This document shows, one piece after another, positions 2,733 to 26,437 of a stretch of DNA of 64,000 bases. The notes beneath the pieces were generated by a model. The model saw only the letters and a program-made list of their open reading frames with translations. It had not been told where the DNA came from and ran no database searches. Position 1 is the first letter of the stretch. Each line of letters starts with the position of its first letter. The position numbers and the translations under genes are program-made. The stretch comes from Catellatospora sp. IY07-71 (GTDB taxonomy: Bacteria > Actinomycetota > Actinomycetes > Mycobacteriales > Micromonosporaceae), in the NCBI RefSeq assembly GCF_018326265.1, contig NZ_AP023360.1:7809001-7873000 (forward strand). Reading direction: 5' to 3'.

Positions 2733-4943
2733 ATGCTGGCACGGCTGGGCAGGGCGGCGGCGCGCGGGCGATACGTCGTCTGCGCGATCTGGACGGTGCT
2801 GGCGCTGGCCGGGGCGGTGCTCGGCGGCTCGGTGTACGACCGCACCGAGTCACCCGGCCGGCTGCGCCCGGACGCGCCCTCGACGCTGGCGCAGGCGCGG
2901 CTCGACGCGCTGGACCCGGAGGGCGAGACGGTCGTCGCGGTGATCGGCGGGCGGGATTTCCACGCCACCGCGCTGGTCGACAGCGCCACCCGGATCATGT
3001 TCGAGATCCGCGCCATCCCCGGCGTGGCCGAGGTGACTGACGCGTACACCGCGGGCTCCGGCATGATCGGACCCGAGCGGCAGAACTCCCTCGCGGTGAT
3101 CGAGCTGCAGCCTGAGCTGAGCGACGACGAGGCGCTGGCCGTGGCCGAGCGGGTCGCCGCCGCGCTGCACCGCATCGACTCCCCCGAGATCCTCGTCGGC
3201 GGAAAGCTGCTGGCCGAGCGGGACTTCAACGACCAGGCCGTCGCCGACGCCGCGTTCGGCGAGTCGGTCGCGCTGGTCGTCCTGTGCGCGGCGCTGATCG
3301 TGATGCTGGGCGGGCTGGCCGCCGGGCTGCTGCCGCTGGGCGCGGCGCTGGCCGTGGTCGCGGGCACGCTGCTGGCACTGACCGGGCTGGCCGGCACGAT
3401 GCCGGTCAGCGAGTACACCGTCAACGTGGTGACGCTGCTGGGCCTCGGCCTGGCCGTGGACTACAGCCTGCTGATCGTGGCCCGGTTCCGCGAGGAGCGG
3501 GCCGCCGATCCCGGCGCGCCCGTGCCCGAGCTGGTGGCCCGCACGGTCGCCACCGCCGGGCGCGCGGTGCTGGTGTCCGGGCTGGCCGTGGGCATCGCGC
3601 TGTCCGGGCTGTTCGTGTTCGCCGAGCCGCTGCTGGCCGCGATGGCGCTGGGCGGCGCGCTGGTGGTGGCCCTGGCCACGGCCGCCGGGCTGACCCTGGT
3701 GCCCGCGCTGGTCGCGATCGCGCACCGGCGCATCCCCGCGCCGGGCACACGCACCTGGGTGTGGCGTCGCGCGGCCCGCCGCGGCCCCGGGTTCCTGGCC
3801 CGATCCGCCGGGTACGCCCAGCGCCGTCCCGCCGTGGTGGCGCTCGCGGTCACCGTCGGCCTGCTGGTGCTCGCCCTGCCGCTGCTACGCGCGAACCTGG
3901 CCGACTCCGACGCCCGCTCCCTGCCCGCGACCAGCGCGGCGCGGCAGGCGTACGAGGTGGTCCAGCGCGACTTCGCCGACAGGTACCCGCAGCCGGTGCC
4001 GGTGCTGATCGAGGCGTCCGCGAGCGACCCGGCGACGGTCGCGCTGCTGGAGCGGATGCGCGCCGTGCCGGGGGTGACCGATGTGGACGTGCGGGAGGGC
4101 ATACCCCCGCAGGCCACCGTCGCCGAGGTCGAGCTGCCCGGCGGGGCATCGGGTCCACAGGCTCAGCAGCTCGTGCGCGACCTGCGCGCGCTCGACCCGT
4201 CGCTCCAGGTCACCGGCCCCGCCGCGGAACTCGTCGATGCCAAGGACGCCACCGCCGCGCGGCTGCCGGCCGCGCTCGCCGTGGTCGTGCTCGCCACCGG
4301 GCTGCTGCTGTTCCTGCTCACCGGCTCGCTCGTGGTGCCGGTGAAGGCGCTGCTGATGAACCTGCTGACGCTGGCCGCGACGCTCGGCGTGCTGGTCGCG
4401 GTGTTCCAGTGGGGCTGGGGCGCGGGGCTGCTCGGCTTCACCCCGTGGGGCGCCCTGGACCTGACCACGCCCCTGCTGCTGTTCGTCTTCATCTTCGGCC
4501 TGTCCATGGACTACGAGGTCTTCCTGCTGGCCCGCATCCGCGAGGAGTGGCAGCGCCACGGCGACAACGACCGCGCGGTCCTCGCGGGGATCACCGCCAC
4601 CGGCCCCGTGGTCACCGCCGCCGCCGTCTCGATCGGCATCGTCTTCCTCGGCTTCGCCCTCGGCGACCTGATCGCGGTCAAGGAGATCGGCGTCGGCATG
4701 GCGGTCGCCGTCCTGCTCGACGTCACCGTCGTCCGCGGCCTCCTCCTCCCCGCCCTCATGTCCCTCCTCGGCCGCACCAACTGGTGGCCCACCACCCACC
4801 CGTCCCCGTCCCCGCCCCCGCCTCCGCCCGCGCCCGCGCCCGCCCCAAGATCGTCCGACTTGCCTGGCAGACGGGCGAAAGCGCGCTCAAGATACGCCCA
4901 GGTGCCAGGCAAGTCGGACGATCTTGGGCGCGGTGACGGTTAG
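2733..4943 (+). CDS. MMPL/RND-family transporter
   Basis: A 736-residue membrane protein of the MMPL branch of the RND superfamily. It has an N-terminal transmembrane helix (about 18-38), a first extracytoplasmic domain, a membrane bundle at about 180-330 holding GLGLAVDYSLLIVARFREE, a second extracytoplasmic domain, and a second bundle at about 515-680 holding FIFGLSMDYEVFLLARIREEW. Both bundles carry the Gly/Asp-Tyr pair expected for proton coupling. Substrate unknown; relatives export lipids or drugs. After NWWP the protein runs through a Pro/Ser-rich linker and then about 29 residues (704-732) encoded by the palindromic repeat at 4844-4928, so the natural C-terminus has probably been extended. 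Confidence 0.9.
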   Translation: MLARLGRAAARGRYVVCAIWTVLALAGAVLGGSVYDRTESPGRLRPDAPSTLAQARLDALDPEGETVVAVIGGRDFHATALVDSATRIMFEIRAIPGVAEVTDAYTAGSGMIGPERQNSLAVIELQPELSDDEALAVAERVAAALHRIDSPEILVGGKLLAERDFNDQAVADAAFGESVALVVLCAALIVMLGGLAAGLLPLGAALAVVAGTLLALTGLAGTMPVSEYTVNVVTLLGLGLAVDYSLLIVARFREERAADPGAPVPELVARTVATAGRAVLVSGLAVGIALSGLFVFAEPLLAAMALGGALVVALATAAGLTLVPALVAIAHRRIPAPGTRTWVWRRAARRGPGFLARSAGYAQRRPAVVALAVTVGLLVLALPLLRANLADSDARSLPATSAARQAYEVVQRDFADRYPQPVPVLIEASASDPATVALLERMRAVPGVTDVDVREGIPPQATVAEVELPGGASGPQAQQLVRDLRALDPSLQVTGPAAELVDAKDATAARLPAALAVVVLATGLLLFLLTGSLVVPVKALLMNLLTLAATLGVLVAVFQWGWGAGLLGFTPWGALDLTTPLLLFVFIFGLSMDYEVFLLARIREEWQRHGDNDRAVLAGITATGPVVTAAAVSIGIVFLGFALGDLIAVKEIGVGMAVAVLLDVTVVRGLLLPALMSLLGRTNWWPTTHPSPSPPPPPPAPAPAPRSSDLPGRRAKARSRYAQVPGKSDDLGRGDG
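4844..4928. repeat. palindromic repeat family P1, copy A (inside MMPL gene)
   Basis: Two 26-base arms (4844-4869 and 4903-4928) are exact reverse complements; the core reads GACTTGCCTGGCA / TGCCAGGCAAGTC. The 33-base loop contains GGGCGAAAGCGCG and ends in AAGATACGCCC, so GGGCG/CGCCC can form a nested inner stem. The same arms and loop recur at 9479-9565 (same orientation) and, inverted, at 12779-12858 and 26354-26437. This copy is translated in frame as the end of the MMPL protein. Confidence 0.9.
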
Positions 4944-4985
4944 CGGCAGCGGCGGCCACGGCTCCGGAACACGCCTGCTGCCGCA

Positions 4986-5029
4986 GACCACAACTTCTGG
5001 GATGTAGCTACATCCCAGAAGTTGTGGTC
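4986..5029. repeat. perfect 44-bp palindrome
   Basis: Two 22-base arms meet with no loop: GACCACAACTTCTGGG at the left end is mirrored exactly at the right end, with centre GATGTAGCTACATC. It lies 42 bases after the MMPL stop and 100 bases before cbiZ. It may act as a terminator when transcribed, or be a palindromic repeat of another family. There is no U-tract. Confidence 0.85.
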
Positions 5030-5129
5030 CGGCGCGGATGACCTGCCGCTCGCGACCGGCGCTCGCCGGCACCCGCCGGGCGGCGCGCCTGCGGGCAGAG
5101 GGTCGTGACGCCGCCCGCGGCCGGGAGCC

Positions 5130-5855
5130 ATGAGCGGGTTAGGGTCCCGTGTGACCTCGCTGCCCTGCCCCGACCCGACCCCGCTGCTACCCGAGCTGGT
5201 CCGGCACGCGGACGGCGAGGGGACCCTGCCCGCGCTGCTGTGGCGGGCCGGACCGGGCTGGCGGATGATCTCCAGCGCGGTGCTGGGCGGCGGGCTGGGT
5301 GAGCGGGAGTGGGTGCTGAACGCGCAGGTCGGACACGGATACACCCGGCTGGATCCGGATCGGCACCTGGCGGAGATCGCGCGTGAGCACGGGCTGAGCG
5401 GGCCGGGGGTCGGCCTGATGACCGCCGCCCGGGTCGCGGAGGGCGCCCACGCGGCCGACGGCGGGGCGGAGGCCGTGGTGACGGCCGGGATCGGGGTGTG
5501 CGGGTGGGCCGCGGACCCCGCCGCCGTACCACCCGGCCCGGTCGCCGTGCCGCGCGAGGTCCTGGTGCCGGGGACGATCAACATCGTCGTGGCGGTGCCG
5601 GTGGCGCTGTCGGACGCGGCGCTGGTCAACGCGGTGGCCACGGCGACCGAGGCCAAGGTGCAGGCACTGCGGGACGCGGGCTTCGACGCCTCGGGCACAC
5701 CCACCGACGCGGTATGCGTGGCGGCCTGGCGGGCGGGGGAACCGACCACGTTCGCCGGGCCGCGCTCGGAGTGGGGATCGCGCCTGGCCAGAGCCGTGCA
5801 TGCGGCGACCTACGAGGCCGCGGCCCGCTACCGCGACCGGCGACTTTCGCAGTAG
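5130..5855 (+). CDS. cbiZ: adenosylcobinamide amidohydrolase
   Basis: A 241-residue CbiZ-family protein. These enzymes cut the amide bond of adenosylcobinamide to give adenosylcobyric acid, which lets a cell salvage cobinamide into B12. Family features I recognise are WRMISSAVLGGGLGE near residues 45-60, VGLMTAARV near 95, AVVTAGI, and the run PGTINIVVAVPVALSDAALVNAV around 150-170 followed by TEAKVQAL and PTDAVCVA. Length matches the family. The ATG at 5130 has a weak GGGA upstream. No other cobalamin gene or cobalamin riboswitch is visible nearby, so it is an isolated salvage gene here. Confidence 0.88.
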   Translation: MSGLGSRVTSLPCPDPTPLLPELVRHADGEGTLPALLWRAGPGWRMISSAVLGGGLGEREWVLNAQVGHGYTRLDPDRHLAEIAREHGLSGPGVGLMTAARVAEGAHAADGGAEAVVTAGIGVCGWAADPAAVPPGPVAVPREVLVPGTINIVVAVPVALSDAALVNAVATATEAKVQALRDAGFDASGTPTDAVCVAAWRAGEPTTFAGPRSEWGSRLARAVHAATYEAAARYRDRRLSQ

Positions 5856-5889
5856 CCACAAGAACTTTTGCCGATCTGTTCAGAAGATA

Positions 5890-5918
5890 TGGACAGCGCG
5901 ATCGAAAGCATCTAATGT
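5890..5918 (+). promoter_or_regulatory. candidate sigma-70-type promoter for the PA14/ricin gene
   Basis: TGGACA at 5890-5895 and TAATGT at 5913-5918 are separated by 17 bases in an AT-richer pocket of the 192-base gap before the gene at 6048. The -35 matches TTGACA at 5 of 6 positions; the -10 has the TANNNT form common in actinomycetes. It would give a leader of about 120 bases. Confidence 0.4.
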
Positions 5919-6047
5919 TCCGATCCACCGATGTTTCGGGTGCGTTAATCGTCGGCGTCGATGACCACCCGCGCACGGACCGACGGTCACCGCGCGGGCA
6001 ACGACCGCCGCGACCCGTCGGACACCCCCTCACCCCCGGGAGGAACG

Positions 6048-9000
6048 ATGGGCAGACGACTGCTACGCCGGCTCCGCGGTCCCGTCCTTGCCACGCTGAC
6101 CCTGGCCCTGGCCGGCGGCGTCTGGGCGGTCCCCGCCACCGCCGCGATACCCGCTCAGGAGCCCGGCGTCACGCTGCGCGTCTACGACCTGCAGGTGTCG
6201 CTGACCGAGCTGTGCACGCTCAAGGCCGCGCAGACCCCGAACGTCGACAAGCTCATGCCGACGGTCAACTGGACCACCGCCGCCGAGTTCGGATTCGAGG
6301 ACCGCTTCCTCGCCCAGGTCATCGGCAACGTCAACATCACCACCGCCGGCTCCTACGCGTTCCGGCTCACCAGCGACGACGGCTCCGAGCTGAAGATCGA
6401 CGGCGCCATGGTGATCGACCACGACGGGCTGCACGGCGCCACCGCCAAGGAGGGCGCGGTCACCCTGACCACCGGCTACCACGCCCTGAACGTCAACTTC
6501 TTCGAGGCGACCGGCGGCCAGCAGCTCACCCTGGAGTGGCGCCTGCCGGGCGCGAGCGCGTACACGCTGGTGCCGAACTCGGCGCTGAGCACGGACGCGG
6601 GTGTGGTGCGGGTGACCGCGCCCGGCCGCAAGGAGTGCGAGGGCGCGACCGACTCCGCCGGCGACGGGCTGCCGCTGACCGGCGTGCACCCCGGCTACAC
6701 GCTGACCAACCTGCGCCCCGGCACGTTCCAGCCCAAGGTCACCGGCATGGACTGGCTGCCCGACGGCCGCCTGGTGGTCTGCACCTGGGGCGGCAACGAC
6801 CAGTCCGGCACGTCCCAGGCCGGTGAGGTGTACATCCTCGGCGGCACGGGCGGGACCGGCGGTCCGTCCGGCGTCACCACCAAGAAGATCGCCGGCAACC
6901 TCAAGGAGCCGATGGGCCTCAAGGTGGTCGACGGCGTCGTCTACGTGTCCGAGAAGCAGCGGCTCACCCAGCTGCTGGACACCAACGGCGACGAGGTGGC
7001 CGACCAGTACAACACCATCGCGACCTGGCCGTGGGGCGGCAACTTCCACGAGTTCGCGTTCGGCCTGCTCTACGCCGACGGGTTCTTCTACCTGAACCTG
7101 TCCGTGTCGATCAACTACGGCGGCGCGACCACGGTCCCGCAGCCCGCGGTCAACCGGGGCACCTCCATCAAGGTGAACAAGGCGACCGGCGCGGTGTCCT
7201 ACGTGGCCGGTGGCCTGCGTACGCCGCACGGCATCGGCTGGGGCCCCGAGGGCGGCGTCTTCGTCACCGACAACCAGGGCGGCTGGCTGCCCGCGTCCAA
7301 GCTGGTGCACATCAAGCAGGGCCGCTTCTTCAACCACTACACCACCCCGGCCGGGCAGTTCGACGCCGCGCCGGTGACGCCGCCGGTGCTGTGGATGCCG
7401 CAGAACGAGATCGCCAACTCGCCCAGCACCCCGTTGCTGCTGCCCAGCGGCCCGTACGCAGGGCAGTTCGTGATAGGCGACGTCACCTACGGCGGCCTGC
7501 AGCGGGCGTACGTGGAGAAGGTCAACGGGGAGTACCAGGGCGCGCTGTTCCGGATGACGCAGGGCCTGGAGGCGGGCGTCTCCGAGGTGGCGCTCGGCCC
7601 CGACGGTGCGATCTACGTCGGCGGCCTGGGCGCGGGCGGCAACTGGGGCCAGTCCGGCAAGCTCACCTACGGCCTGCAGAAACTCACCCCGAACGGCGCC
7701 GCCGTGTTCGACATCCTCGCCATGCGGGCCACCGGGACCGGCTTCGAGCTGGAGTACACCCAGCCCCTGTCGGCCGCGACCGCGGCGAGCCTGCTGTCGA
7801 GCTACAAGGTCAAGCAGTGGCGCTACCAGCCCACCGCCGACTACGGCGGCCCGAAGATCGACGAGCAGACGCTGACGCCCAGCGCGGCGACCCTGTCCGC
7901 CGACGGCAAGAAGGTCACGCTCACCGTGCCGGGCCTGCTCGCGGGCCGGGTGGTGCACGTGCGCTCGCCGCGCCCGTTCACCTCGACCAGCGGCCAGTCG
8001 CTGTGGAGCACCGAGGCGTGGTACACGCTCAACGCCATCCCGGGGCAGACCCCGCCCCCGGCCGACGGCGTCTACCAGGCCGAGAACGCCGTGCGCGGCG
8101 GGACCGCCAGTGTCGCCACCGACCACACCGGCTACACCGGCAGCGGCTTCGTCGCCGGCTACGGCAGCGTGGGCGCGAGCACCACGTTCACCGTGACGAC
8201 CAGCTCGGCGGGGGTGTACCAGGCGGCCCTGCGCTACTCCAACGGGCCGAACCCGTCCGCCATGGCGAAGACGGTCAGCCTGTACGTCAACGGGACCAAG
8301 CTACGGCAGATCACCCTCGGCGCGACCCCGAACTGGGACACCTGGTCGGTGCACACCGAGAGCGTGGCGCTCAACGCCGGGGCCAACACCATCGCGTACA
8401 AGGTGGACACCGGCGACGTCGGGCACGTCAACCTGGACGCGCTGACCATCACCGGTGGCGCCGGGGCGATCGTCGGCACCGGCGGCAAGTGCCTCGACAT
8501 CGACAACGCCGGAACGGCCAACGGCACGAAGATCCAGCTCTGGACCTGCAACGGCTCCAACGCCCAGCGCTGGGCCCGGGTCGGCAGCACGTTCCAGGCG
8601 CTGGGCAAGTGCCTGGACGTCGACAACGCGGGCACCGCCAACGGCACCAAGGTGCAGCTGTGGACCTGCAACGGCACCGGCTCGCAGGTCTGGCAGCCGC
8701 AGGCCGACGGCACCATCCTCAACCCGCAGTCGGGCAAGGTGCTCGACGCCCTGTCCGGCAGCTCCGCCGACGGCACCCAGATCCACATCTGGCAGGCCGC
8801 CGGGGTGCTCAGCCAGCGCTGGGTGGTGTCCGGCAGCGGGCAGCGCATCCAGCTGTTCGACGGCGACGACGTGGCGCTGTGGCAGACCACCGGCGGCGCG
8901 AACGCCACCTGGCCCTTCTCCGGCGGGTCGATGGAGTCGCTGGGCGGGGACATCCGCACCCGCCAGGCGTTCGGCGACTTCAAGCTGCACGTCGAGTGGC

Positions 9001-9425
9001 TGGAGCCGACCTACCCGAGCAACGTCACCGGGCAGGCGCGCGGGAACAGCGGCATCTACCTGCAGGACCGCTACGAGCTGCAGGTGCTCGACTCGTACGG
9101 CGACACCACGCTCGCCAACGACGAGGCGGGCTCGATCTACAGCCGCCGCGCGCCCGACCGCAACGCGGCCACCGCACCGGAGACCTGGCAGTCCTACGAC
9201 ATCATGTACCGGGCCGCCCGCTTCGACGGGTCCGGGAACAAGATCGCCGAGGCCAGGGTGACCATCGTGTGGAACGGCTTCGTGGTCCACAACGACGTGA
9301 CCATCGCCGGGTCCACCGGCGGCGGCGCGGCCGAGAGCGCCGCTCCCGGCCCGATCCGCCTCCAGGACCACGGCGACGCGGGCGCCAACCCCCGCTTCCG
9401 CAACATCTGGCTCGAACCCCTCTGA
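6048..9425 (+). CDS. secreted PA14 / propeller / CBM / ricin / DUF1080 protein
   Basis: A 1125-residue secreted protein. The ATG at 6048 follows a strong GGGAGGA and gives a clean signal peptide (RRLLRRLRG, then a hydrophobic stretch, cleavage near VPATAA). Domains in order: PA14-type beta-barrel (about 39-171, SDDGSELKIDG); glucose/sorbosone-dehydrogenase-like beta-propeller (about 215-550, GMDWLPDGRLVV, EPMGLKVVDGVVYVSE); an Ig-like linker domain (about 552-665); CBM6/35-like domain (about 674-803, YQAENAVRGG to VNLDALTIT); ricin-type trefoil lectin (about 805-929, repeated GKCLD(I/V)DNAGTANGTK and QLWTCNG); and a C-terminal DUF1080 / 3-keto-disaccharide hydrolase domain (about 934-1125, LFDGDD, GNSGIYLQDRYELQVLDS). 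Probably binds and degrades or oxidises an extracellular glycan. The substrate is unknown. Confidence 0.9.
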   Translation: MGRRLLRRLRGPVLATLTLALAGGVWAVPATAAIPAQEPGVTLRVYDLQVSLTELCTLKAAQTPNVDKLMPTVNWTTAAEFGFEDRFLAQVIGNVNITTAGSYAFRLTSDDGSELKIDGAMVIDHDGLHGATAKEGAVTLTTGYHALNVNFFEATGGQQLTLEWRLPGASAYTLVPNSALSTDAGVVRVTAPGRKECEGATDSAGDGLPLTGVHPGYTLTNLRPGTFQPKVTGMDWLPDGRLVVCTWGGNDQSGTSQAGEVYILGGTGGTGGPSGVTTKKIAGNLKEPMGLKVVDGVVYVSEKQRLTQLLDTNGDEVADQYNTIATWPWGGNFHEFAFGLLYADGFFYLNLSVSINYGGATTVPQPAVNRGTSIKVNKATGAVSYVAGGLRTPHGIGWGPEGGVFVTDNQGGWLPASKLVHIKQGRFFNHYTTPAGQFDAAPVTPPVLWMPQNEIANSPSTPLLLPSGPYAGQFVIGDVTYGGLQRAYVEKVNGEYQGALFRMTQGLEAGVSEVALGPDGAIYVGGLGAGGNWGQSGKLTYGLQKLTPNGAAVFDILAMRATGTGFELEYTQPLSAATAASLLSSYKVKQWRYQPTADYGGPKIDEQTLTPSAATLSADGKKVTLTVPGLLAGRVVHVRSPRPFTSTSGQSLWSTEAWYTLNAIPGQTPPPADGVYQAENAVRGGTASVATDHTGYTGSGFVAGYGSVGASTTFTVTTSSAGVYQAALRYSNGPNPSAMAKTVSLYVNGTKLRQITLGATPNWDTWSVHTESVALNAGANTIAYKVDTGDVGHVNLDALTITGGAGAIVGTGGKCLDIDNAGTANGTKIQLWTCNGSNAQRWARVGSTFQALGKCLDVDNAGTANGTKVQLWTCNGTGSQVWQPQADGTILNPQSGKVLDALSGSSADGTQIHIWQAAGVLSQRWVVSGSGQRIQLFDGDDVALWQTTGGANATWPFSGGSMESLGGDIRTRQAFGDFKLHVEWLEPTYPSNVTGQARGNSGIYLQDRYELQVLDSYGDTTLANDEAGSIYSRRAPDRNAATAPETWQSYDIMYRAARFDGSGNKIAEARVTIVWNGFVVHNDVTIAGSTGGGAAESAAPGPIRLQDHGDAGANPRFRNIWLEPL

Positions 9426-9478
9426 CCCACCGATCGCGGCGCCCGGCCCACCCGCCGGGCGCCGCCCCCACGCGGCGG

Positions 9479-9565
9479 GCGCTTGATCACTCGACTTGCC
9501 AGGCACATGGGCGAAAGCGCGTCCAAGATACGCCCGGGTGCCAGGCAAGTCGGAGGATCAAGCGC
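9479..9565. repeat. palindromic repeat family P1, copy B
   Basis: Arms around GCTTGATC...CGACTTGCCAGGCA and TGCCAGGCAAGTCG...GATCAAGC flank a loop with GGGCGAAAGCGCG and CAAGATACGCCC, in the same orientation as copy A. The left arm has CCAGG where the other copies have CCTGG, so the arm is slightly imperfect. It sits between two convergent genes (stops at 9425 and 9603) and could serve both as a terminator. Confidence 0.88.
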
Positions 9566-9602
9566 CCGCCGCGCGGCGTTCCGGCGCTCGGCGCTCGGAT
9601 GG

Positions 9603-10844
<1,242 letters not shown>

Positions 10845-10853
10845 CTGCGGCAC

Positions 10854-11440: not shown

Positions 11441-11481
11441 ATGAACGGCGTCGCCGCTCCCCCACCCGAAAGGCGTACGCC

Positions 11482-11637
11482 ATGAGTGACCTGACCCCGC
11501 AGCGCACCCCGTCCGGCCCCAGTGTCCCCCGCGCCCTGCGCGCCGCCCTCAGCGAGGACTGGCTCGCCACCGCCGTCGGCCTGCTGCTGCTCGCCCTCGT
11601 CCTGACCGGAGTCATCCCGACGGGCCTGGTGCCCTGA
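11482..11637 (+). CDS. 51-residue membrane protein coupled to the exporter
   Basis: A short gene starting ATG at 11482 with AAAGG upstream. The product has a polar N-terminus (SDLTPQRTPSG), then LSEDWLATAVGLLLLALVL, one transmembrane helix, and ends in VIPTGLVP. Its stop overlaps the exporter start as TGATG at 11635-11639, so translation is tightly coupled. The SEDWLA...GLLLL segment resembles the N-terminal first helix of longer YeiH/sulfate-exporter proteins, suggesting it supplies that helix as a separate chain. This is inference from position and motif. Confidence 0.7.
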   Translation: MSDLTPQRTPSGPSVPRALRAALSEDWLATAVGLLLLALVLTGVIPTGLVP

Positions 11638-12764
11638 TGGTCGCCACCACCCCCGACGTCGAGGCCGCGCCCCCCGCCGAGCGGCCCGCTCGCACCTGGC
11701 CGTGGCTGGTCCTCGGCCTGTTCATCGTGCTGCTTCTCGGCTCGCTCGCCCGCTGGCTGGAGGACGTGATCCCCGCCGCGGCCAAGGGCACCAGCCTGGA
11801 GAAGGTCGCCGCCGCGGTCGAATACCCGATCTACGCCATCGCGCTCGGCCTGATCGGCAACGTGATCGTCTACTACACCGGCCTGCGCGAGCGCATCGCC
11901 GACGCCGTACGCACCGAGTTCTTCATCAAGACCGGCCTGGTGCTGCTCGGCGCGTCGATCAACCTGAGCCTCATCGTCAAGGCGGCCGGTCCCGCGATCC
12001 TGCAGGCCCTGCTGCTGATCAGCAGCGTCTTCCTGATCGCGTGGTGGCTCGGCGGCCTGCTGGGCCTCGACGAGAAGCTGCGCGCGCTGCTGTCGGCGGC
12101 CGTGTCGATCTGCGGCGTGAGCGCCGCCATCGCCGCGGCGGGGGCCGTGCGGGCGCGGCGCGAGCAGCTCGCGTACGCCGCCAGCCTGGTCATCGTGTTC
12201 GCGCTGCCGTCGATCTTCCTGCTGCCGTGGCTGGCCGACGTGCTCCGGCTCGACCCCGCCGTCGCGGGCGCCTGGATCGGCGGCAACATCGACACCACAG
12301 CCGCGGTGACCGCCGCGGGCGCGCTGGCCGGCGAGCAGACCCTGCAGATCGCCACCATCGTCAAGGCCACCCAGAACGCGCTCATCGGCATCGTCGCGGT
12401 CGCGCTCACCGCGTACTTCGCGTTCAAGGTGGAGAAGACCGAGGACGCCGAGCGGCCGGGCCTGCGGCAGCTGTGGGACCGGTTCCCGAAGTTCGTGCTC
12501 GGCTTCATCGCCGCGTCGGCCACCGGCACCTGGTACGCCGGCACGGTCAGCGCGGCCGAGGCCAAGGCGACCATCGGCGTCGTCAACGACCTGCGCACCT
12601 GGTTCCTGATCCTCGCCTTCGTCAGCATCGGCCTGCAGCTGCGGGTCAGCGCCCTGCGCGAGGCGGGCTGGCGGCCGGTCGCCGTGTTCGGCGGGGCCGC
12701 CGTCGCCAACCTGGCCATCGGCCTCGCCCTCGCCGCCCTCCTCTTCACCGGCTTCACCGTCTGA
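11637..12764 (+). CDS. YeiH-type putative sulfate exporter family protein
   Basis: A 375-residue integral membrane protein with about ten hydrophobic segments, belonging to the family formerly called conserved hypothetical 698 (putative sulfate exporter). Recognisable pieces are FFIKTGLVLLGASINLSLI, SAAVSICGVSAAIAAAGAV, WIGGNIDTTAAVTAAGAL, VKATQNALIGIVAVALTAYF and VVNDLRTWFLILAFVSIGL. The repeated Gly-rich half-helices (CGVSAAIAA and NIDTTAAVTAAG) are the family's likely transport site. Real substrates are poorly known; sulfonates or sulfate are the usual suggestion. It is translated from an ATG overlapping the stop of the 51-residue gene. Confidence 0.88.
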   Translation: MVATTPDVEAAPPAERPARTWPWLVLGLFIVLLLGSLARWLEDVIPAAAKGTSLEKVAAAVEYPIYAIALGLIGNVIVYYTGLRERIADAVRTEFFIKTGLVLLGASINLSLIVKAAGPAILQALLLISSVFLIAWWLGGLLGLDEKLRALLSAAVSICGVSAAIAAAGAVRARREQLAYAASLVIVFALPSIFLLPWLADVLRLDPAVAGAWIGGNIDTTAAVTAAGALAGEQTLQIATIVKATQNALIGIVAVALTAYFAFKVEKTEDAERPGLRQLWDRFPKFVLGFIAASATGTWYAGTVSAAEAKATIGVVNDLRTWFLILAFVSIGLQLRVSALREAGWRPVAVFGGAAVANLAIGLALAALLFTGFTV

Positions 12765-12778
12765 TCCGCCCGACCCCG

Positions 12779-12858
12779 TCGATCGTCCGATTTGCCTGGC
12801 ACCTGGGCGTATCTTGCGCGTGGATTCGCCCATGTGCCAGGCAAGTCGGACGGTCTTG
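12779..12858. repeat. palindromic repeat family P1, copy C (inverted loop)
   Basis: Arms GATCGTCCGA..TTGCCTGGCA and TGCCAGGCAAGTCGGACGGTC flank a loop reading GGGCGTATCTTGCGCG then ATTCGCCC. The reverse complement of this loop matches that of copies A and B, so the element lies in the opposite orientation. It starts 15 bases after the exporter stop and ends 28 bases before the SnoaL-like gene. Confidence 0.88.
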
Positions 12859-12885
12859 CCGGGCGGTGGGGCTTATCGTCGGCCG

Positions 12886-13224: not shown

Positions 13225-13230
13225 CGCCTT

Positions 13231-13290: not shown

Positions 13291-13297
13291 ATCCCGG

Positions 13298-18138: not shown

Positions 18139-18153
18139 CCGCTGCCCGTGCTG

Positions 18154-18184
18154 AGGGCTGCCGCCGCGCAAAGGCGGGAGCCCT
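18154..18184 (+). terminator. stem-loop after ABC operon
   Basis: AGGGCTGCCGCC (18154-18165) pairs with GGCGGGAGCCCT (18173-18184) around a 7-base loop, 16 bases past the permease stop. No U-tract, which is usual in high-GC actinomycetes. Confidence 0.55.
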
Positions 18185-18210
18185 GATCCTGGGTGGTTCC
18201 GGCTGGCAGA

Positions 18211-20188: not shown

Positions 20189-20269
20189 GGCACCCTCCGC
20201 CTTTCCAGCCCGCCAAGCCCAGCCCGCGCGCGACGGTGCGCGGCGGCCCGTGATCGGCGGTGCGGGTGC

Positions 20270-20285
20270 GTTCCGCAAACGGAAC
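20270..20285. promoter_or_regulatory. candidate operator GTTCCG-N4-CGGAAC
   Basis: A 16-base inverted repeat GTTCCGCAAACGGAAC in the 123-base gap between divergent benE and the XRE-cupin regulator. Position and symmetry suit the dimeric helix-turn-helix protein encoded next door. No binding data can be inferred. Confidence 0.45.
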
Positions 20286-20311
20286 GGCCCTTCGTGGTGC
20301 ACGATAGCCGG

Positions 20312-20884
20312 GTGAGTTCGCGTGCGGCAAGCGGTCGGCCGGCCCTGGAGCCCGGCGCGGAAGGGGTCGGCGCACGCCTGCGCAGGCTGCGCGAGCAGGC
20401 CGGCGTCTCGCTGTCCGAGCTGGCGCGGCGGGCGAACGTGGGCAAGGCCACGCTGTCCGGCCTGGAGAACGGCACCCGCAACCCGACCCTGGAGACGCTG
20501 TGGTCGGTGACCGCCGCGCTCGGCGTGCCGATCACGACCCTGCTCGCCGGTCAGCGGTCGGGGGTGGTGCGCGGCACCGCGGTCGAGGCGACGCTGCTGC
20601 AGGTCTTCGACGACGGGCCGGTGACGTACGAGCTCTACCGCATGGTCGTGCCGCCCGGCCCGGCGCAGGCCTCCCCCGCCCACCACACCGGCGTGACCGA
20701 GCACGTCACCGTGTTCAGCGGCGTGCTCCAGGCGGGCCCGGCCGACGCCCCGCTGCTGGCCGGTCCGGGCGAGCACATCTCGTGGACCTCGGACGTGCCG
20801 CACCGCTACGCCGCCGTCGGCGACGAGCCGGTCCAGGCGAGCCTGCTCATCCGCTACCCCCGGACGGCGAATCCGCAGCCCTGA
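20312..20884 (+). CDS. XRE-family regulator with cupin sensor domain
   Basis: A 190-residue regulator with an N-terminal helix-turn-helix (about 18-73: GARLRRLREQAGVSLSELARRANVGKATLSGLENGTRNPTLETLW) and a C-terminal cupin (about 95-185: PGPAQASPAHHTGVTEHVTVFSGVLQAG, PGEHISWTSDVPHRYAAVG). This class binds a small ligand in the cupin and controls an adjacent transporter. Its divergent neighbour is benE, so it most likely regulates that gene, perhaps through the palindrome at 20270-20285. Start GTG 20312 was chosen as the closest in-frame start before the HTH. Confidence 0.88.
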   Translation: MSSRAASGRPALEPGAEGVGARLRRLREQAGVSLSELARRANVGKATLSGLENGTRNPTLETLWSVTAALGVPITTLLAGQRSGVVRGTAVEATLLQVFDDGPVTYELYRMVVPPGPAQASPAHHTGVTEHVTVFSGVLQAGPADAPLLAGPGEHISWTSDVPHRYAAVGDEPVQASLLIRYPRTANPQP

Positions 20885-21012
20885 CCAGGTGCGCGAGGGG
20901 GTCCGCATTGGAGTGGGGCGGCCCGCCGATCCGTGGTCGGGCAAAGGTTTCCGACAGTTCGGTACCTTTCCCGGGCGTACGCCGTTAAGCGGGGTGACGG
21001 CAGGAGAACGCT

Positions 21013-21318
21013 ATGTCACGGCCGCAACCACGACCCCGATCCGGCACCGACGTACGGCACCTATCCCGCGGCACCACCTATGTCGGGCGCACGGCGATCC
21101 AGAGCCGCGCCCTGGCCATGGTGACCGAGGGCAGAACCCGCTGGAGCGAGCACCACATGCAGGTCCACGGCGTGTGCGACCGCTGCGGGCACACCTATCC
21201 GTGCGAGGACGCGCTGCAGGCGGCCTGGCAGATCGTGTACTGGGAGCCCTACCTGCCCGAGCCGGGGCTGGTGCGGCCGTACGTCGTCGCGGAGTGGGAC
21301 CCCGGCGACCTTCCCTAG
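21013..21318 (+). CDS. hypothetical protein with short Cys motif
   Basis: A 101-residue protein starting ATG 21013 with AGGAG at 21002-21006. It is basic at the start (SRPQPRPRSG), followed by SRALAMVTEGRTRWSEHHMQVHGVCDRCGHTYPCEDA, which includes CDRC and a third Cys seven residues later, resembling a small zinc knuckle. The C-terminal third is acidic and aromatic (WQIVYWEPYLPEPG). I do not recognise the family. It stands alone, with a palindrome 40 bases after its stop. Confidence 0.7.
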   Translation: MSRPQPRPRSGTDVRHLSRGTTYVGRTAIQSRALAMVTEGRTRWSEHHMQVHGVCDRCGHTYPCEDALQAAWQIVYWEPYLPEPGLVRPYVVAEWDPGDLP

Positions 21319-21358
21319 CGCCGCGCCCACGTCCCGGTCCCGGACGAACCCATCAGTC

Positions 21359-21413
21359 GATCATGAAGTTAGGGCAGCGACACACCGCCGAACACGCCCC
21401 TAAGTTCATGATC
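21359..21413. repeat. palindromic repeat family P4
   Basis: GATCATGAAGTTAGGGC (21359-21375) pairs with CCCCTAAGTTCATGATC (21397-21413), two mismatches, around a 21-base loop. It lies between tandem genes, 40 bases past the stop of the CDRC protein. It shows the same arm length as the other palindromes in the window but unrelated sequence. Confidence 0.8.
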
Positions 21414-21530
21414 AACGGGGTGGTGTTGCGCCCCGGATATGCGCACATTTCCTAGAATGGGCATCGACTTGGTGACGGGTTCACACTAGCATCCATGTAG
21501 TTGAATTCGTGCGCATTCGAGGGGGCGACG

Positions 21531-22739
21531 ATGGCGACCGGGCATGACGTGGTGCAGGCGCGGACCTACCCGTTCGGTGATCCGGATCGGCTCAATCTGA
21601 ATCCGATGTATGCGCAGCTGCGCCGCGACGAGCCGCTGACCAGGGTGCGGCTGCCGTTCGGGGAGGAGGCGTGGCTGGCGACGCGGTATGACGACGTGCG
21701 GATGGTGCTCGGAGACGCCCGGTTCAGCCGGGCGGCGAGCGTCGGGCGCGACGAGCCGCGCACCCACCCGCACCAGAACGACTCCGGCATGCTCGCCATG
21801 GACCCGCCCGAGCACACCCGGCTGCGCAAGCTCATCGCGAAGGCGTTCACGGCACGCCGCGTCGAGCTGCTGCGCCCGCGCACCCAGGAGATCGCGAACG
21901 GCCTGCTCGACGACATGGAGCGGCACGGCTCCCCCGCCGACCTGGTCGAGCACTTCGCCGACGTGCTGCCCGTCGCCGTCATCTGCGAGCTGCTCGGGGT
22001 GCCCTTCGCCGACCGGGCGAAGTTCCAGACCTGGTCCGAGGCGATCATCTCGACCACCTCGCTGACCCCGCAGCAGATCATGGAGTACCTCGGCAACCTG
22101 CACGGCTACATCGCGGGCCTGATCGCCCAGCGCCGCATCCAGGAGACCGACGACCTGCTCAGTGCCATGGTCAAGGCCCGGGACGAGGACGAGGACCGGC
22201 TCACCGAGCAGGAGCTGGTGCAGCTGTCCGCCGGCCTGCTCGCGGCCGGGCACGAGACCACCGTGACCCAACTACCCAACTTCATGTACGTGCTGCTCAC
22301 CAACCCCGACCGGCTCGCCGAGCTGCGCGACGACCCCTCGCTCATCCCGGCCGCCGTGGACGAGCTGATGCGCTACATCCCGCTCGGCACCGCCGCCGCG
22401 TTCGCCCGCTACGCCACCGAGGACATCGAGGTGGGCGGGGTGCTGGTGCGGGCCGGGGAGCCGGTGTTGGGCGCGCTCGCCTCCGCCAACCGCGACGAGC
22501 GCGTCTTCAGCGACCCCGACGAGCTGGATTTCCACCGCGAGAGCAACCCGCACCTCGGCTTCGGCCACGGCCCGCACCACTGCGTCGGCGCCCAGCTCGC
22601 CCGGCTGGAGCTGCAGGTCGCGCTGCACGCGCTGATCACCCGTTTCCCGAAGCTGCACCTGGCGGTCGCCGAGGAGGAGCTGCCGTGGAAGAAGGGCATG
22701 CTGGTGCGTGGTCTCAAGAAGCTGCCGGTGGCCTGGTGA
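21531..22739 (+). CDS. cytochrome P450
   Basis: A 402-residue bacterial class I P450. The I-helix oxygen-binding motif is LLAAGHETT, the K-helix ExxR is VDELMRYIP, and the haem loop is FGHGPHHCVGAQLAR with the axial Cys. DPPEHTRLRKLIAKAFT is the usual C-helix region. Such enzymes hydroxylate or otherwise oxidise small molecules; substrate cannot be inferred. The ATG at 21531 follows GAGGGG. It overlaps the ferredoxin gene by GTGA, so electrons probably come from that partner. Confidence 0.93.
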   Translation: MATGHDVVQARTYPFGDPDRLNLNPMYAQLRRDEPLTRVRLPFGEEAWLATRYDDVRMVLGDARFSRAASVGRDEPRTHPHQNDSGMLAMDPPEHTRLRKLIAKAFTARRVELLRPRTQEIANGLLDDMERHGSPADLVEHFADVLPVAVICELLGVPFADRAKFQTWSEAIISTTSLTPQQIMEYLGNLHGYIAGLIAQRRIQETDDLLSAMVKARDEDEDRLTEQELVQLSAGLLAAGHETTVTQLPNFMYVLLTNPDRLAELRDDPSLIPAAVDELMRYIPLGTAAAFARYATEDIEVGGVLVRAGEPVLGALASANRDERVFSDPDELDFHRESNPHLGFGHGPHHCVGAQLARLELQVALHALITRFPKLHLAVAEEELPWKKGMLVRGLKKLPVAW

Positions 22740-22960
22740 GCGGCCAGTGGCGGGTCTCCGTCGACCGCGACCGCTGCATCGGCTCCGGCCTGTGCGCCGG
22801 CACCGCGCCCGAGCACTTCCAGCTCGTCGACAAGAAGTCCACCCCGCTGCGTGAGCTGGTCGAGCCCGACGAGGCGGTCAGCGATGCCGCCGACTGCTGC
22901 CCCGTCGAGGCCATCCTCGTCACCGACGCCGCCACCGGCGACACCGTCGCGCCCGGCTGA
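22736..22960 (+). CDS. 3Fe-4S ferredoxin partner of P450
   Basis: A 74-residue ferredoxin with the three-Cys pattern of actinomycete P450 partners: Cys14 and Cys20 in DRCIGSGLC and Cys55 in the CCPVEAI motif. The single cluster is most likely 3Fe-4S. It begins at a GTG overlapping the P450 stop, which ties their expression. No ferredoxin reductase gene is visible in the window. Confidence 0.92.
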   Translation: MSGQWRVSVDRDRCIGSGLCAGTAPEHFQLVDKKSTPLRELVEPDEAVSDAADCCPVEAILVTDAATGDTVAPG

Positions 22961-23083
22961 GCCCGGTGGGTGAGATGGGCGACAGTGCGCGGGGGTGCGG
23001 ACGCGGCTGATTCGGTCATCGTGCTTCCGGCTGCGTACAGTTTCCGGGCGAGGTTGGCAGGCGAGCACGGAACGGGCACCGGG

Positions 23084-24535
23084 ATGACGATCAGCGAGCA
23101 CGAGGGCACGGGCATCGACCCTGCGCGCCTGGAGGACTGCCTGAACGTGCTGGCGGAGATCGACAAGCTGCCCACCGAGCACCCGGACGCGATCGCGGTG
23201 CGCCGGGCCGTCGGGCGCATGTTCAAGCACGTCAAGCAGCAGCGCCGCCGGGACAAGCGGGCCGAGGTGCTGGCCGCGGACGACGCGGTGACCGCGGCGA
23301 CGGCGACGGCCGCGCCGGGCCGCATCGACGACGAGACGGCGGGCGCGTTCGGGCTGACCTCGCCCACGAAGGGCGACATCGCCGGGCACCTGCGCCAGGC
23401 GCGCGCCTGCTACATCTGCAAGGTCCGCTACACCCAGGTCGACGCGTTCTACCACCAGCTGTGCCCGGAGTGCGCGGAGCTGAACCACGCCCGCCGCGAC
23501 GCCCGCGCCGACCTGACCGGCCGCCGCGCGCTGCTCACCGGCGGCCGCGCCAAGATCGGCATGTACATCGCGCTGCGGCTGCTGCGCGACGGCGCGCACA
23601 CCACGATCACCACCCGCTTCCCCAGCGACGCGGTGCGCCGGTTCAAGGCGCAGCCGGACAGCCACGAGTGGCTGGACCGGCTGACCATCGTGGGCATCGA
23701 CCTGCGTGACCCGGCGCAGGTGGTGGCGCTGGCCGACTCCGTCGCCGGGCAGGGCCCGCTGGACATCCTGATCAACAACGCGGCGCAGACGGTGCGCCGC
23801 TCGCCGCAGGCGTACGCGCAGCTGGTGGCGGCCGAGTCGGCGCCGCTGCCGGACGGGCCGCTGCCCGAGCTGATCAGCTTCGGCCACTACAGCGGGTCGA
23901 GCCCGGCCGCCGCCGCGATCCAGGCCATGCCGCACCAGCAGCTCAGCCCGGAGCTGGTCACCTCGCTGGCGCTGAGCACCGGCGGAGCGAGCCTGGCCCG
24001 CATCGCCGACGGCACCGCGATCGACGCGGGCGGCCTGGTGCCCGACCTCGACGCCTCCAACAGCTGGGTGCAGGTGGTGCAGGAGGTCGACCCGATCGAG
24101 CTGCTGGAAGTGCAGCTGTGCAACGTCACCGCCCCGTTCGTGCTGGTCAGCCGCCTGCGGGCGGCCATGGCCGCGTCACCGGCGCGCCGCAAGTACGTGG
24201 TGAACGTGTCGGCGATGGAGGGGCAGTTCAGCCGCCGGTACAAGGGGCCGGGCCACCCGCACACGAACATGGCCAAGGCCGCGCTGAACATGCTGACCCG
24301 CACCAGCGCCGGGGAGATGCTCACCGACGGCATCCTGATGACGGCCGTGGACACCGGCTGGATCACCGACGAGCGCCCGCACCCCACCAAGATCCGCCTG
24401 GCGGACGCGGGTTTCCACGCCCCGCTCGATCTGGTCGACGGCGCCGCGCGGGTGTACGACCCGATCGTGCGCGGCGAGCTGGGCGAGGACCTCTACGGCT
24501 GCTTCCTCAAGGACTACAAGCCCTCACCCTGGTGA
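23084..24535 (+). CDS. SDR-fold protein with N-terminal zinc-ribbon-like domain
   Basis: A 483-residue protein. The N-terminal 150 residues are helical and basic and end in ACYICKVRYTQ...CPECAEL, two CxxC pairs that look like a zinc ribbon. The rest is a Rossmann SDR domain: LLTGGRAKIGMYIALRLL is the dinucleotide loop, ILINNAAQT the NNAG-like motif, and YVVNVSAMEGQFSRR the catalytic Ser strand. Where SDRs have YxxxK, this protein has TNMAKAALNM, so the catalytic Tyr is Thr. It may bind NAD(P) without classical dehydrogenase chemistry, or use another residue. ATG 23084 follows 123 bases after the ferredoxin stop. Function unknown. Confidence 0.8.
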   Translation: MTISEHEGTGIDPARLEDCLNVLAEIDKLPTEHPDAIAVRRAVGRMFKHVKQQRRRDKRAEVLAADDAVTAATATAAPGRIDDETAGAFGLTSPTKGDIAGHLRQARACYICKVRYTQVDAFYHQLCPECAELNHARRDARADLTGRRALLTGGRAKIGMYIALRLLRDGAHTTITTRFPSDAVRRFKAQPDSHEWLDRLTIVGIDLRDPAQVVALADSVAGQGPLDILINNAAQTVRRSPQAYAQLVAAESAPLPDGPLPELISFGHYSGSSPAAAAIQAMPHQQLSPELVTSLALSTGGASLARIADGTAIDAGGLVPDLDASNSWVQVVQEVDPIELLEVQLCNVTAPFVLVSRLRAAMAASPARRKYVVNVSAMEGQFSRRYKGPGHPHTNMAKAALNMLTRTSAGEMLTDGILMTAVDTGWITDERPHPTKIRLADAGFHAPLDLVDGAARVYDPIVRGELGEDLYGCFLKDYKPSPW

Positions 24536-24539
24536 GCCG

Positions 24540-25259
24540 TCAGGCGGCGTGGGTGTCGTCGGCGAGCAGCGCGGCCGCGTCGTGTTCGGTGATCTCCAGC
24601 GCGGGCCCGAGCACCGTCAGCGCGCCCTGATAGCCGTCGCCCGGCGCGAGCGTGAACATGCGCGCCGAGGCGACCACCTCCGGGCGGCCGTCGTAGCGGT
24701 GCAGCCGGGGCAGCTCTGCCGGGAGCGACACCTCGATCTTGGTCATGGCCGTGCGCAGGCCGTCGCCGGTCGCCTTGAGCACGGACTCCTTGCGCGTCCA
24801 GTACGTGTAGAAGCCGTGCTGGTCCAGCGGCGCCGACGCGGCGATCTCCGCCTCGCACAGCGCGAGCCGGGCCACCCCGAGGATGTCGCGCTGGTCCTGG
24901 CAGTGCTCCACGTCGACGCCGAGCGGCCCGGCCAGGCCCACCGCGACCGCGATCCGGTCCGCCGAGTGCGACACCGACACCTCCAGCCCGGCGGGCAGGG
25001 TCGGCCGCCCGTGCGGGACGGCGCACGTGGTGCAGGAGCGGTCGATGCGCACCGCGGCCGGCTTCTCGCCCAGGTGGCGGCCCGCCACCACGCGCAGCAG
25101 CGCGGCCGCGACGGTCTGCCGGGCCTTGTCCTCGTCGCGGCGCAGCGACTCCCGGCGCTCCCGCTCCCCGGCGCTGAGCAGCCGCTGGTGCCAGGGCCGC
25201 TCGTCGGCGGGGCGGGCCCAGTAGACCCGGCACTCACCGGGACGCAGGTCGTCGCTCAC
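24540..25259 (-). CDS. 4'-phosphopantetheinyl transferase, Sfp type
   Basis: A 239-residue Sfp-type transferase, which moves phosphopantetheine from CoA to a carrier-protein Ser. Motifs include SVSHSADRIAVAVG, GVDVEHCQDQRDIL (metal-binding Asp and Glu) and YTYWTRKESVLKATGDGL (the WxxKES motif). A CTTC pair (RSCTTCAVPHGRPTLP) precedes the fold core. It overlaps the upstream lipoprotein hydrolase gene as GTGA at 25256-25259. No NRPS, PKS or carrier protein is in the window, so it probably serves carriers elsewhere. Confidence 0.92.
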   Translation of the reverse strand: MSDDLRPGECRVYWARPADERPWHQRLLSAGERERRESLRRDEDKARQTVAAALLRVVAGRHLGEKPAAVRIDRSCTTCAVPHGRPTLPAGLEVSVSHSADRIAVAVGLAGPLGVDVEHCQDQRDILGVARLALCEAEIAASAPLDQHGFYTYWTRKESVLKATGDGLRTAMTKIEVSLPAELPRLHRYDGRPEVVASARMFTLAPGDGYQGALTVLGPALEITEHDAAALLADDTHAA

Positions 25260-26257
25260 AGCTTTGCCTCGAATCTCGACACGCCCGAGCGGGTGCCGTC
25301 CTTGGCGAGACGGCCCTTGGCCGCCGCGTCCGCGTACAGCGTCCAGCGCAGGAAATCGGTCACGGTCTTCATCATCGGGTCGAAGCCCCGAGCGCCCGGC
25401 GCGAGGAACTCGCTGTGCCCGCCGCCGAGCACGGTCAGGAACGCCCGCGGCCAGGACGTCGCGTCGTACGCGCTGCGCCCCGTCTCGTACTTGACCACCG
25501 CGTCCCGGTCGCCGTGCACGAACAGCACCGGCGTACGCGAGCCGCGGAAGCCGCCCAGCGAGCCGCCCGCGATCACCACCGCCGCCCGCACCCGGTCGTC
25601 ACGCTTGTTCGCCAGCATGCCCGCCGAGGTGAACCCGCCCGCGGAGTGCCCGGCCACCGCGATCCGGCCCCCGTCCAGCCGCCCGGCGAACCGGTCCCCC
25701 GCCGTCGTATTCAGCTTCAGCAGCGCGGTGAGCACCGCCGACCCGTCCGCGGGCTGGTTGATCACGTCCGCGCCCTGGAACGGCGACGCGTCGCGGTTCG
25801 TGAACGGGTACGCCGGTGCGGCCACCACGAAGCCCGCCGCCGCCAGCCGTGTGGTGACCTGCTGGTAGTACGCGGGCAGGCCGCGCAGGCCGTGGCTGAA
25901 CAGCACGATCGGGAACCGTCCGGCGGCGGCCGCGGCGTCCTTGCGCGGCGAGCCGCCCGCCTTTCCGGCGGCCGGATACCAGACGGTGGTCGGCAGCGCG
26001 CGGTCCGCGCCCCGGCTGAGCTTCAGCGTGCGTACGCCCACCGCCAGCGCCGCCTTGGGCGCCCCCGCCACCACGGGCGGCGCGGCTGCACTCGGCGCTG
26101 CCGAAGCCGACACGGCCGCCGACGGCACGACAACGGCGCTGCTCGATGCACTGGGAGTGGGTGGGGTGGCACCGGGCGCCACGGGCGCGGCGCACGCGGT
26201 CACGCTCAGCAGCAGCGACACCGCCAGCAGACGCAGGCGCACCCGGGGCTCCGACAC
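25256..26257 (-). CDS. lipoprotein alpha/beta hydrolase (chlorophyllase/PAF-AH-like)
   Basis: A 333-residue lipoprotein. The signal is [19 protein letters not shown] with a lipobox Cys, followed by an Ala/Ser/Pro linker to about residue 65. The hydrolase part has VLFSHGLRG, the nucleophile elbow [25 protein letters not shown] and a terminal GGGHSEF His. Layout and the FSHGLRG segment resemble dienelactone-hydrolase, platelet-activating-factor acetylhydrolase and chlorophyllase-like esterases. GTG 26257 was chosen because the upstream in-frame extension is repeat P1 copy D. Confidence 0.84.
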
Positions 26258-26353
26258 GCCGCCGACTCTACCGGGAGCACCCACCCGCCGGCTCTCCTCA
26301 CACCCCACCCCACCGGCCGCCCCGTCCCGCGCGCGGCGCGGCGTCCCGCCCCG

Positions 26354-26437
26354 TCCAAGATCGACCGACTTGCCTGGCAACCGGGCGTATCTTGGGCGCG
26401 CATTCGCCCATGTGCCAGGCAAGTCGGCGGATCTTGG
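26354..26437. repeat. palindromic repeat family P1, copy D (inverted loop)
   Basis: TCCAAGATC..CCGACTTGCCTGGCA and TGCCAGGCAAGTCGG..GATCTTGG flank a loop with GGGCGTATCTTGGGCGCG and ATTCGCCC, the same orientation as copy C. It starts 35 bases past the amidase stop on the minus strand and lies before the lipoprotein hydrolase start. Confidence 0.88.

What the first reader, a model, noticed from the sequence alone, without database searches (positions are those of the whole stretch)
4844..26437. A four-copy family of nested palindromes (P1) in both orientations
At 4844-4928, 9479-9565, 12779-12858 and 26354-26437 the same element recurs: arms with core GACTTGCCTGGCA and a loop whose GGGCG/CGCCC ends form an inner stem around a conserved TATCTTG..GCGCG tip. 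Copies A/B and C/D have opposite loop orientations. Conservation of the unpaired loop, not just pairing, means selection or recent spread of a discrete unit. Each copy lies just after a stop codon. Possible roles are a processing or attenuation structure, a REP-like element copied by a tyrosine-type transposase acting in trans, or a MITE.
Basis: partly seen in the sequence, partly recalled or inferred. Interest (0 to 1): 0.72.

Follow-up and report, generated by a model that had tools for sequence, protein, structure and literature searches.

The report
Genus-wide palindromic DNA repeat in Catellatospora
A soil bacterium carries roughly 150 near-identical 83-base palindromes, mostly where genes end; the copies are kept almost letter-perfect at their key positions, which suggests that something reads them, but what it is remains unknown.

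Summary
The four palindromes are real and belong to a genome-wide family, about 150 copies by estimate. The genome is a Catellatospora; all 11 held genomes of the genus carry the family. The unit is 83 bp in fixed register: GATC, three variable bases, a 14-bp arm, three variable bases, GGGCG, an asymmetric centre, then the mirror image. Copies favour gene 3' ends, especially convergent pairs; copy A, however, is read in frame as an MMPL gene's tail.

Presence differs between species, but own and C. bangladeshensis copies are mostly shared. Their conserved columns change 6-8 times more slowly than adjacent DNA. In 864 kb no copy scores 20-60 bits. Arms show no significant covariation, no T-tract follows, loop orientation ignores transcription. 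One base changed in parallel at 13 of 16 orthologous loci, unpairing a stem position. A second genus has the same centre with different arms. No RAYT link was found.

Against: at several sites where relatives lack the element, another strong hairpin sits instead, which favours a structural role.

Best reading: a REPIN/ERIC-like repeat whose copies are kept as sequence-specific DNA sites, partner unknown. Rivals: selfish DNA homogenised by conversion, or an RNA hairpin.

The parts
4845..4927 (+). Copy A, 83-column element; in-frame tail of the MMPL reading frame
9481..9563 (+). Copy B; between convergent genes 5961-9425(+) and 9603-10844(-); absent from the C. bangladeshensis orthologous site
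12777..12859 (-). Copy C; about 13 bp after the stop of 11637-12764(+); present in C. bangladeshensis, replaced by another hairpin in five other relatives
26355..26437 (-). Copy D; just past the stop of 26472-27539(-); identical over 83 of 83 bases in C. bangladeshensis
2733..4943 (+). MMPL-family reading frame that runs through copy A to a TGA at 4941-4943
   Evidence: Pfam MMPL; frame GC plot; orthologue tail
5961..9425 (+). PA14/CBM35/ricin-lectin/3-keto-disaccharide hydrolase-domain gene upstream of B
9603..10844 (-). Sigma-70-like/DUF6596 gene converging on B
11637..12764 (+). Cons_hypoth698 gene upstream of C
26472..27539 (-). Amidase_3/Golvesin_C gene whose stop adjoins D

Best explanation
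An 83-bp palindromic repeat, REPIN/ERIC-like in form, that spread by copying within Catellatospora and whose copies are now individually maintained as sequence-specific DNA sites, mostly at gene 3' ends. Each element is two mirror-image half-sites (GATC-N3-CGACTTGCCWGGCA-NNY-GGGCG) around an asymmetric centre. In a second genus of the family that centre is close to a full dyad, CGAATCWTG-N3-CAAGATTCG. I infer that a DNA-binding protein reads these sites and that the sites change in step with it. Shown: copy family, placement, presence/absence polymorphism, slow change at conserved columns of orthologous copies, lack of significant covariation, parallel change of column 54, loop inversion. Inferred: the copying, the protein, and its job (chromosome organisation or gene-end insulation).
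For: In 24 own-C. bangladeshensis orthologous copies, conserved columns differ in 17 of 1200 cells (1.4%) and variable columns in 72 of 432, against 115 of 1033 (11.1%) in 25-bp and 224 of 2578 (8.7%) in 60-bp flanks (conserved against 25-bp flank P 8e-24). In 864 kb of own DNA, 64 hits score at least 60 bits and none 20-60. Standard pairs fill 84.7% of stem cells against 84.1% in shuffles, 45 of 500 shuffles as high. Column 54 is C in 64 of 64 own copies but A in 15 of 16 C. coxensis copies, with C against A at 13 of 16 distinct orthologous loci (counted), mostly facing an unchanged G30. Loop orientation is 13:10 in tandem contexts. A second genus, g61, has the same centre and different arms. 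One anecdote: the copy beside which an IS605-type tnpB has inserted is the most decayed of 65 (6 deviations).
Against: No partner protein was identified. Slow change by selection and by copy-to-copy conversion leave similar footprints, and variable columns change faster than 25-bp flanks (16.7% against 11.1%, P 0.005). At window C and the L013 site, relatives without the element carry a different strong hairpin; overall 34 of 83 absence entries have a stem score of at least 12, against 103 of 336 element-free gene-end gaps (entries repeat a few loci). This suits a structural role. In g61, arms within a copy pair more than shuffled arms (417 against 391.8 of 528, P 0.0095). One column pair here, 21/63, also pairs more than expected (0.52 against 0.40). 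About 150 sites cover only a small share of gene ends.
Confidence: 0.38

Rival explanations
1. A selfish palindromic replicator (REPIN/MITE-like) with an unidentified non-RAYT recombinase. Hairpin copies insert rarely and also overwrite existing copies, so the family stays uniform without host benefit.
For: Presence/absence polymorphism; loop inversion in 1 of 27 own-C. bangladeshensis pairs and parallel column-54 change; variable columns faster than 25-bp flanks; arms differ between genera.
Against: No recombinase found; no graveyard of decayed copies in the sample, unlike the REP singlets described for P. fluorescens (passages of PMC3116915); own-C. bangladeshensis orthologues differ by 5.6 of 83 bases on average against 16.4 for own paralogues, so wholesale overwriting is not frequent.
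Confidence: 0.3
2. Bidirectional RNA hairpin that helps to terminate, process or stabilise convergent and tandem transcripts, interchangeable with other gene-end hairpins.
For: Very stable folds; 30 of 59 placed copies between convergent genes against a 14% share of intergenic length, P 5e-11; same preference in genus g61, 12 of 22; other hairpins occupy several orthologous sites that lack the element; some excess pairing in g61.
Against: No significant covariation in 65 own copies; the C54/A54 difference leaves the facing G30 mostly unpaired; T is 8% of the 15 bases after the element; orientation unbiased in tandem contexts; conserved unpaired loop columns; 31% of element-free gene-end gaps also hold such stems, so replacement may be chance.
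Confidence: 0.24
3. REP/REPIN mobilised by a RAYT in trans.
For: Size, inverted doublet layout and 3'-end placement resemble REPINs.
Against: PF01797 found in 6 of 11 genus genomes and absent from C. bangladeshensis, which has 87+81 arm matches; the own-genome match is IS200/IS605-type tnpA beside tnpB; no element in any of 9 fetched Y1 loci. No conserved GTAG/CGTC tag in the consensus.
Confidence: 0.04

Closest known systems
REPINs (REP doublets forming hairpins) with RAYT
   Same: About 80 bp, inverted doublet with conserved ends, extragenic, many copies, lineage-specific families.
   Different: No RAYT link found, no GTAG tag, no decayed singlets in the sample, no significant compensatory changes in Catellatospora, conserved asymmetric centre.
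CGTC-tagged REPs
   Same: Palindromic repeats mainly between convergent or tandem genes, reported to lack a dedicated transposase (PMC3733652, abstract and passages).
   Different: 20-40 bp units; the CGTC-like bases here (columns 8-11) are variable.
ERIC and other MITEs
   Same: Imperfect intergenic palindromes; mobiliser unclear here.
   Different: No clear target-site duplication seen; per-copy conservation. ERIC's sequence and size are recalled and were not compared by a tool.
Bidirectional intrinsic terminators
   Same: Strong hairpin at convergent gene ends.
   Different: No T-tract, conserved sequence more than conserved pairing, genus-restricted.

Membership tests
REP/REPIN | Associated RAYT (Y1 tyrosine transposase of the REP type) | tested here: not met
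   own match is IS200/IS605-type tnpA beside tnpB; none in C. bangladeshensis; no element in 9 fetched Y1 loci. The Y1 genes of the other five genomes were not classified one by one
REP/REPIN | Terminal GTAG or CGTC tag | tested here: not met
   no GTAG; columns 9-11 variable
REP/REPIN | Inverted doublet of a conserved short repeat, extragenic, high copy | tested here: met
MITE | Terminal inverted repeats without coding capacity | tested here: met
   copy A is read through by a host gene
MITE | Target-site duplication and a parental IS with the same ends | tested here: inconclusive
   no clear duplication in eight comparisons, but junctions have diverged; no systematic IS-end search was made
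MITE | Mobility (filled and empty orthologous sites) | tested here: inconclusive
   presence differs between species, but two of the three own-C. bangladeshensis differences look like losses in the own genome, and copy B is unpolarised
Intrinsic terminator | Hairpin followed by T-tract | tested here: not met
   T 8% in the 15 bases after 62 copies
Structured RNA element | Compensatory base changes in stems | tested here: not met
   65 own copies, no measure beyond shuffles (whole-arm shuffle P 0.07); weak excess pairing in 22 g61 copies (P 0.0095)
Structured RNA element | Match to an Rfam family | tested here: not met
   only a ZMP-ZTP riboswitch elsewhere in the window, five other loci: over the elements only below-threshold microRNA hairpin matches
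Protein-binding site family | A protein that binds it specifically | not testable with these tools
   needs pull-down or DAP-seq

The most novel reading that the evidence does not exclude
A lineage-specific chromosomal site system in two Micromonosporaceae genera: over a hundred palindromic docking sites per genome, each under purifying selection, read by one unknown DNA-binding protein. Sites are seeded by copying into gene ends and shift together when the protein's specificity shifts, keeping a common central dyad (CGAATCWTG-N3-CAAGATTCG) and outer GATC while the arms are replaced between genera.
Probability: 0.3. Interest if true: 0.8.

Novelty: new variant of a known kind. Interest (0 to 1): 0.6.

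Why it matters
Palindromic repeats are usually treated as drifting mobile debris or as RNA hairpins. This family helps to tell the possibilities apart: orthologous copies in close species change slowly at fixed columns, without significant compensatory pairing, and one base shifted in parallel across loci. That makes an old question testable: does the host keep dispersed bacterial palindromes as sites on its DNA? Close species with and without a given copy, other hairpins standing in at the same gene ends, and a second genus with new arms around the same centre are natural experiments. My full-text searches (open-licence PMC only) listed no paper that, from titles and abstract starts, describes this repeat.

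Tried and rejected
RAYT: PF01797 searched in own genome and genus; not supported. Target palindrome: B's flanks looked like a stem extension and one empty site (L002) is a short palindrome. A shuffle test over 62 copies showed flank complementarity not above chance (4.42 against 4.66 pairs of 12), so dropped. Replication-strand bias: the 100 listed copies show no consistent orientation by megabase. Regular spacing: not seen (CV 1.20 against 0.98 for uniform, 79 copies below 4.9 Mb). Autoregulated partner gene: 9 of the 12 genes flanking the six own copies called divergent, plus one g61 gene, scanned; no DNA-binding family except an IS605-type tnpB. G028 and G143 model hits were not pursued: G143 looks like chance tandem palindromes; the G028 hit has the arms with another loop on a 5-kb contig. 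Virus collection: 0 contigs for the arm-loop pattern, 3 for the central dyad, not examined.

I therefore lowered the best explanation (0.45 to 0.38), the selfish rival (0.32 to 0.30) and the novel case (0.35 to 0.30), and raised the RNA rival (0.15 to 0.24).

Limits: gene calls are from a home-made codon-usage finder. Own-genome loci (40 stretches of 20 kb) were chosen around good matches. Copies were cut to 83 columns by a profile, so indels near the ends may be hidden (174 of 178 hits had no internal indel, printed before the script crashed). Column rates leave out four pairs with indels, flipped pairs and repeats of one locus; the pairs for A and D are not in them. The absence entries count some sites more than once. 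Genus g61 is unnamed here.
Full report
What is there. The four window copies are real. The window is G000:C1:7809001-7873000 of one 8.6 Mb contig. A loop-plus-arm pattern matched 37 stretches in named genomes, all Catellatospora, five species, so the genus is Catellatospora, family Micromonosporaceae (family recalled). The arm pattern has 88+89 matches in the own genome against 0 for the control. It matches 11 of 61 genomes, which are all 11 of the genus and 0 of 50 others (control: one match, in one of the 61). A two-arm pattern has 73 matches on each strand of the own genome, so at least 73 elements. Two overlapping patterns (71 and 63 elements, 54 shared) suggest 83 copies in the first 4.04 Mb. 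Scaled by arm matches (177 genome-wide, 100 listed in that stretch) this gives about 147, an estimate. A covariance model hits the scoring cap (37) in all 8 genus genomes drawn.

Anatomy. Sixty-five own copies align in 83 columns with one single-base gap. Column i mirrors 84-i: GATC (5-8/76-79), arm 12-25/59-72, inner GGGCG/CGCCC (29-33/51-55), an asymmetric centre with CAAGAT at 44-49, and variable spacers 9-11, 26-28, 56-58, 73-75. Pairing at mirrored columns is close to what independent columns would give, except 21/63 (0.52 against 0.40). Over the whole stem 84.7% of cells pair against 84.1% in shuffles, 45 of 500 as high, and 10 pairs change on both sides against 11.2. Whole-arm shuffles give P 0.07. 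The palindrome is thus conserved mainly as sequence.

Placement. With a home-made gene finder, 64 own copies fall as 30 convergent, 23 tandem, 6 divergent, 1 inside a frame (A), 4 at stretch edges. Convergent gaps are 14% of intergenic length (P 5e-11). In tandem contexts loop orientation is 13 same, 10 opposite to transcription (counted). T is scarce after the element (8%). Copy A is read as the tail of an MMPL frame in this genome and in C. bangladeshensis.

Presence and absence. Of 29 own entries with a mapped G002 site, 28 are present (one entry is a half-arm beside an intact copy) and copy B is absent; of 34 G002 entries with a mapped own site, 31 are present, some counted twice, and the 3 absences are two copies. 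Both of those copies also occur at the orthologous place in C. coxensis, one also in C. sichuanensis, so they were probably lost here. B is not polarised. Copy C is shared with G002, while five other relatives have another palindrome at that spot. No clear target duplication is visible. One loop is inverted among 27 own-G002 pairs.

Conservation in place. In 24 own-G002 pairs the 50 columns that are at least 90% conserved differ at 17 of 1200 cells, middle columns at 43 of 360, variable columns at 72 of 432. Flanks differ at 115 of 1033 (25 bp) and 224 of 2578 (60 bp). Copy D is identical over 83 bases. Orthologues differ by 5.6 bases on average (26 pairs, range 1-10), own paralogues by 16.4. 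A maximum-sensitivity scan of 864 kb gives 64 hits of at least 60 bits, none of 20-60, three of 10-20 (one cut by a stretch end, one a half-arm beside an intact copy) and 16 under 10, against 13 under 10 in reversed sequence. Thirty-six of 65 copies have no deviation at the conserved columns. The copy with six deviations, L007:12972, is the one beside which an IS605-type tnpB has inserted; its C. bangladeshensis orthologue is closer to consensus. That is one case, and it may simply mark a relaxed site.

Parallel change. Column 54 is C in 64 of 64 own and 59 of 63 C. bangladeshensis copies, but A in 15 of 16 C. coxensis, 10 of 11 C. paridis, 9 of 11 C. sichuanensis and 2 of 4 C. vulcania. Of 16 distinct orthologous loci, 13 show C in one clade and A in the other, 3 do not (counted). 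G30, the facing base, mostly stays G. Either the sites followed a changed reader or copies were converted.

Other hairpins at the same sites. Where relatives lack the element, the gap often holds a different palindrome, as at window C and at L013:10012. A stem score of at least 12 occurs in 34 of 83 absence entries and in 103 of 336 element-free gene-end gaps of the own genome. By gap length the contrast is 21 of 24 against 46 of 118 at 140-260 bp, but 11 of 23 against 38 of 121 at 80-140 bp and 2 of 35 against 2 of 61 below 80 bp. The entries repeat a few loci, so this is suggestive only.

Relatives. The central pattern CGAAWN7CAAGATWCG occurs in 11 of 11 Catellatospora and 4 of 4 genomes of another genus of the family (g61, 87-256 strand matches each), and once each in 9 of the other 339 genomes; the reversed control matches 2 of 354. 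In g61 the element spans about 67 bp with other arms (GCGCTGGATCAGGG...), keeps GATC, has the centre CGAATCWTG-N3-CAAGATTCG, and sits convergent in 12 of 22 cases. There, arms within a copy pair more than shuffled arms (417 against 391.8 of 528 cells, P 0.0095). The two-arm Catellatospora pattern hit 10 of 354 family genomes: 9 Catellatospora and one match in G028.

What it is not. No RAYT link: the own genome's only PF01797 hit is a 138-aa tnpA beside tnpB, G002 has none, and 9 fetched Y1 loci hold no element. Rfam has no match to the elements at threshold. Papers: search listings, plus passages of PMC3116915 and PMC10969869, and of PMC3733652 passages, abstract, background and the start of results.

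Judgement. Form and spread are REPIN/ERIC-like, but two defining REP features fail. Conservation of each copy without significant covariation favours sequence-specific DNA recognition with host benefit (0.38) over a homogenised selfish element (0.30) and an RNA hairpin (0.24). The partner protein and the copying enzyme are unknown.

Noticed in passing
window 4987-5028: A perfect 42-nt palindrome of another type (centre TGTAGCTACA) lies about 60 bp after copy A. A similar one with other outer bases is at L015:9826, also near an element. It was not seen just after A in C. bangladeshensis.
   Followed up: partly
L099, L118, L109, L108, L111, L002 and others at orthologous sites lacking the element: Several further palindromes occur at gene ends in the genus (for example ones with arms ATCATGAACTT, AAGAGTCGCGG or TTTCGGGGAAA), possibly other repeat families that take the same place.
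   Followed up: partly
window 54030-54120 (-): ZMP/ZTP riboswitch match above the Rfam gathering score.
   Followed up: no
L007:13058-14573: An IS605-type tnpB, no tnpA noted beside it, has inserted about 10 bp from an element; C. bangladeshensis has the site without it.
   Followed up: partly
L008:15899-17140: A second tnpB, 99% identical at protein level to the one at L021, ends about 95 bp from another element.
   Followed up: no
G000:C1:4868983-6749285: Element-poor stretch: 3 of 100 listed copies in 22% of the chromosome, possibly an accessory-gene region.
   Followed up: no
L225 (G028 contig 292): One palindrome with Catellatospora-type arms but a different loop in another genus, on a 5-kb contig; could be real or contamination.
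   Followed up: no
L277, L278, L279: Three viral-collection contigs carry the central dyad CGAATCNTGNNNCAAGATTCG at one place each.
   Followed up: no
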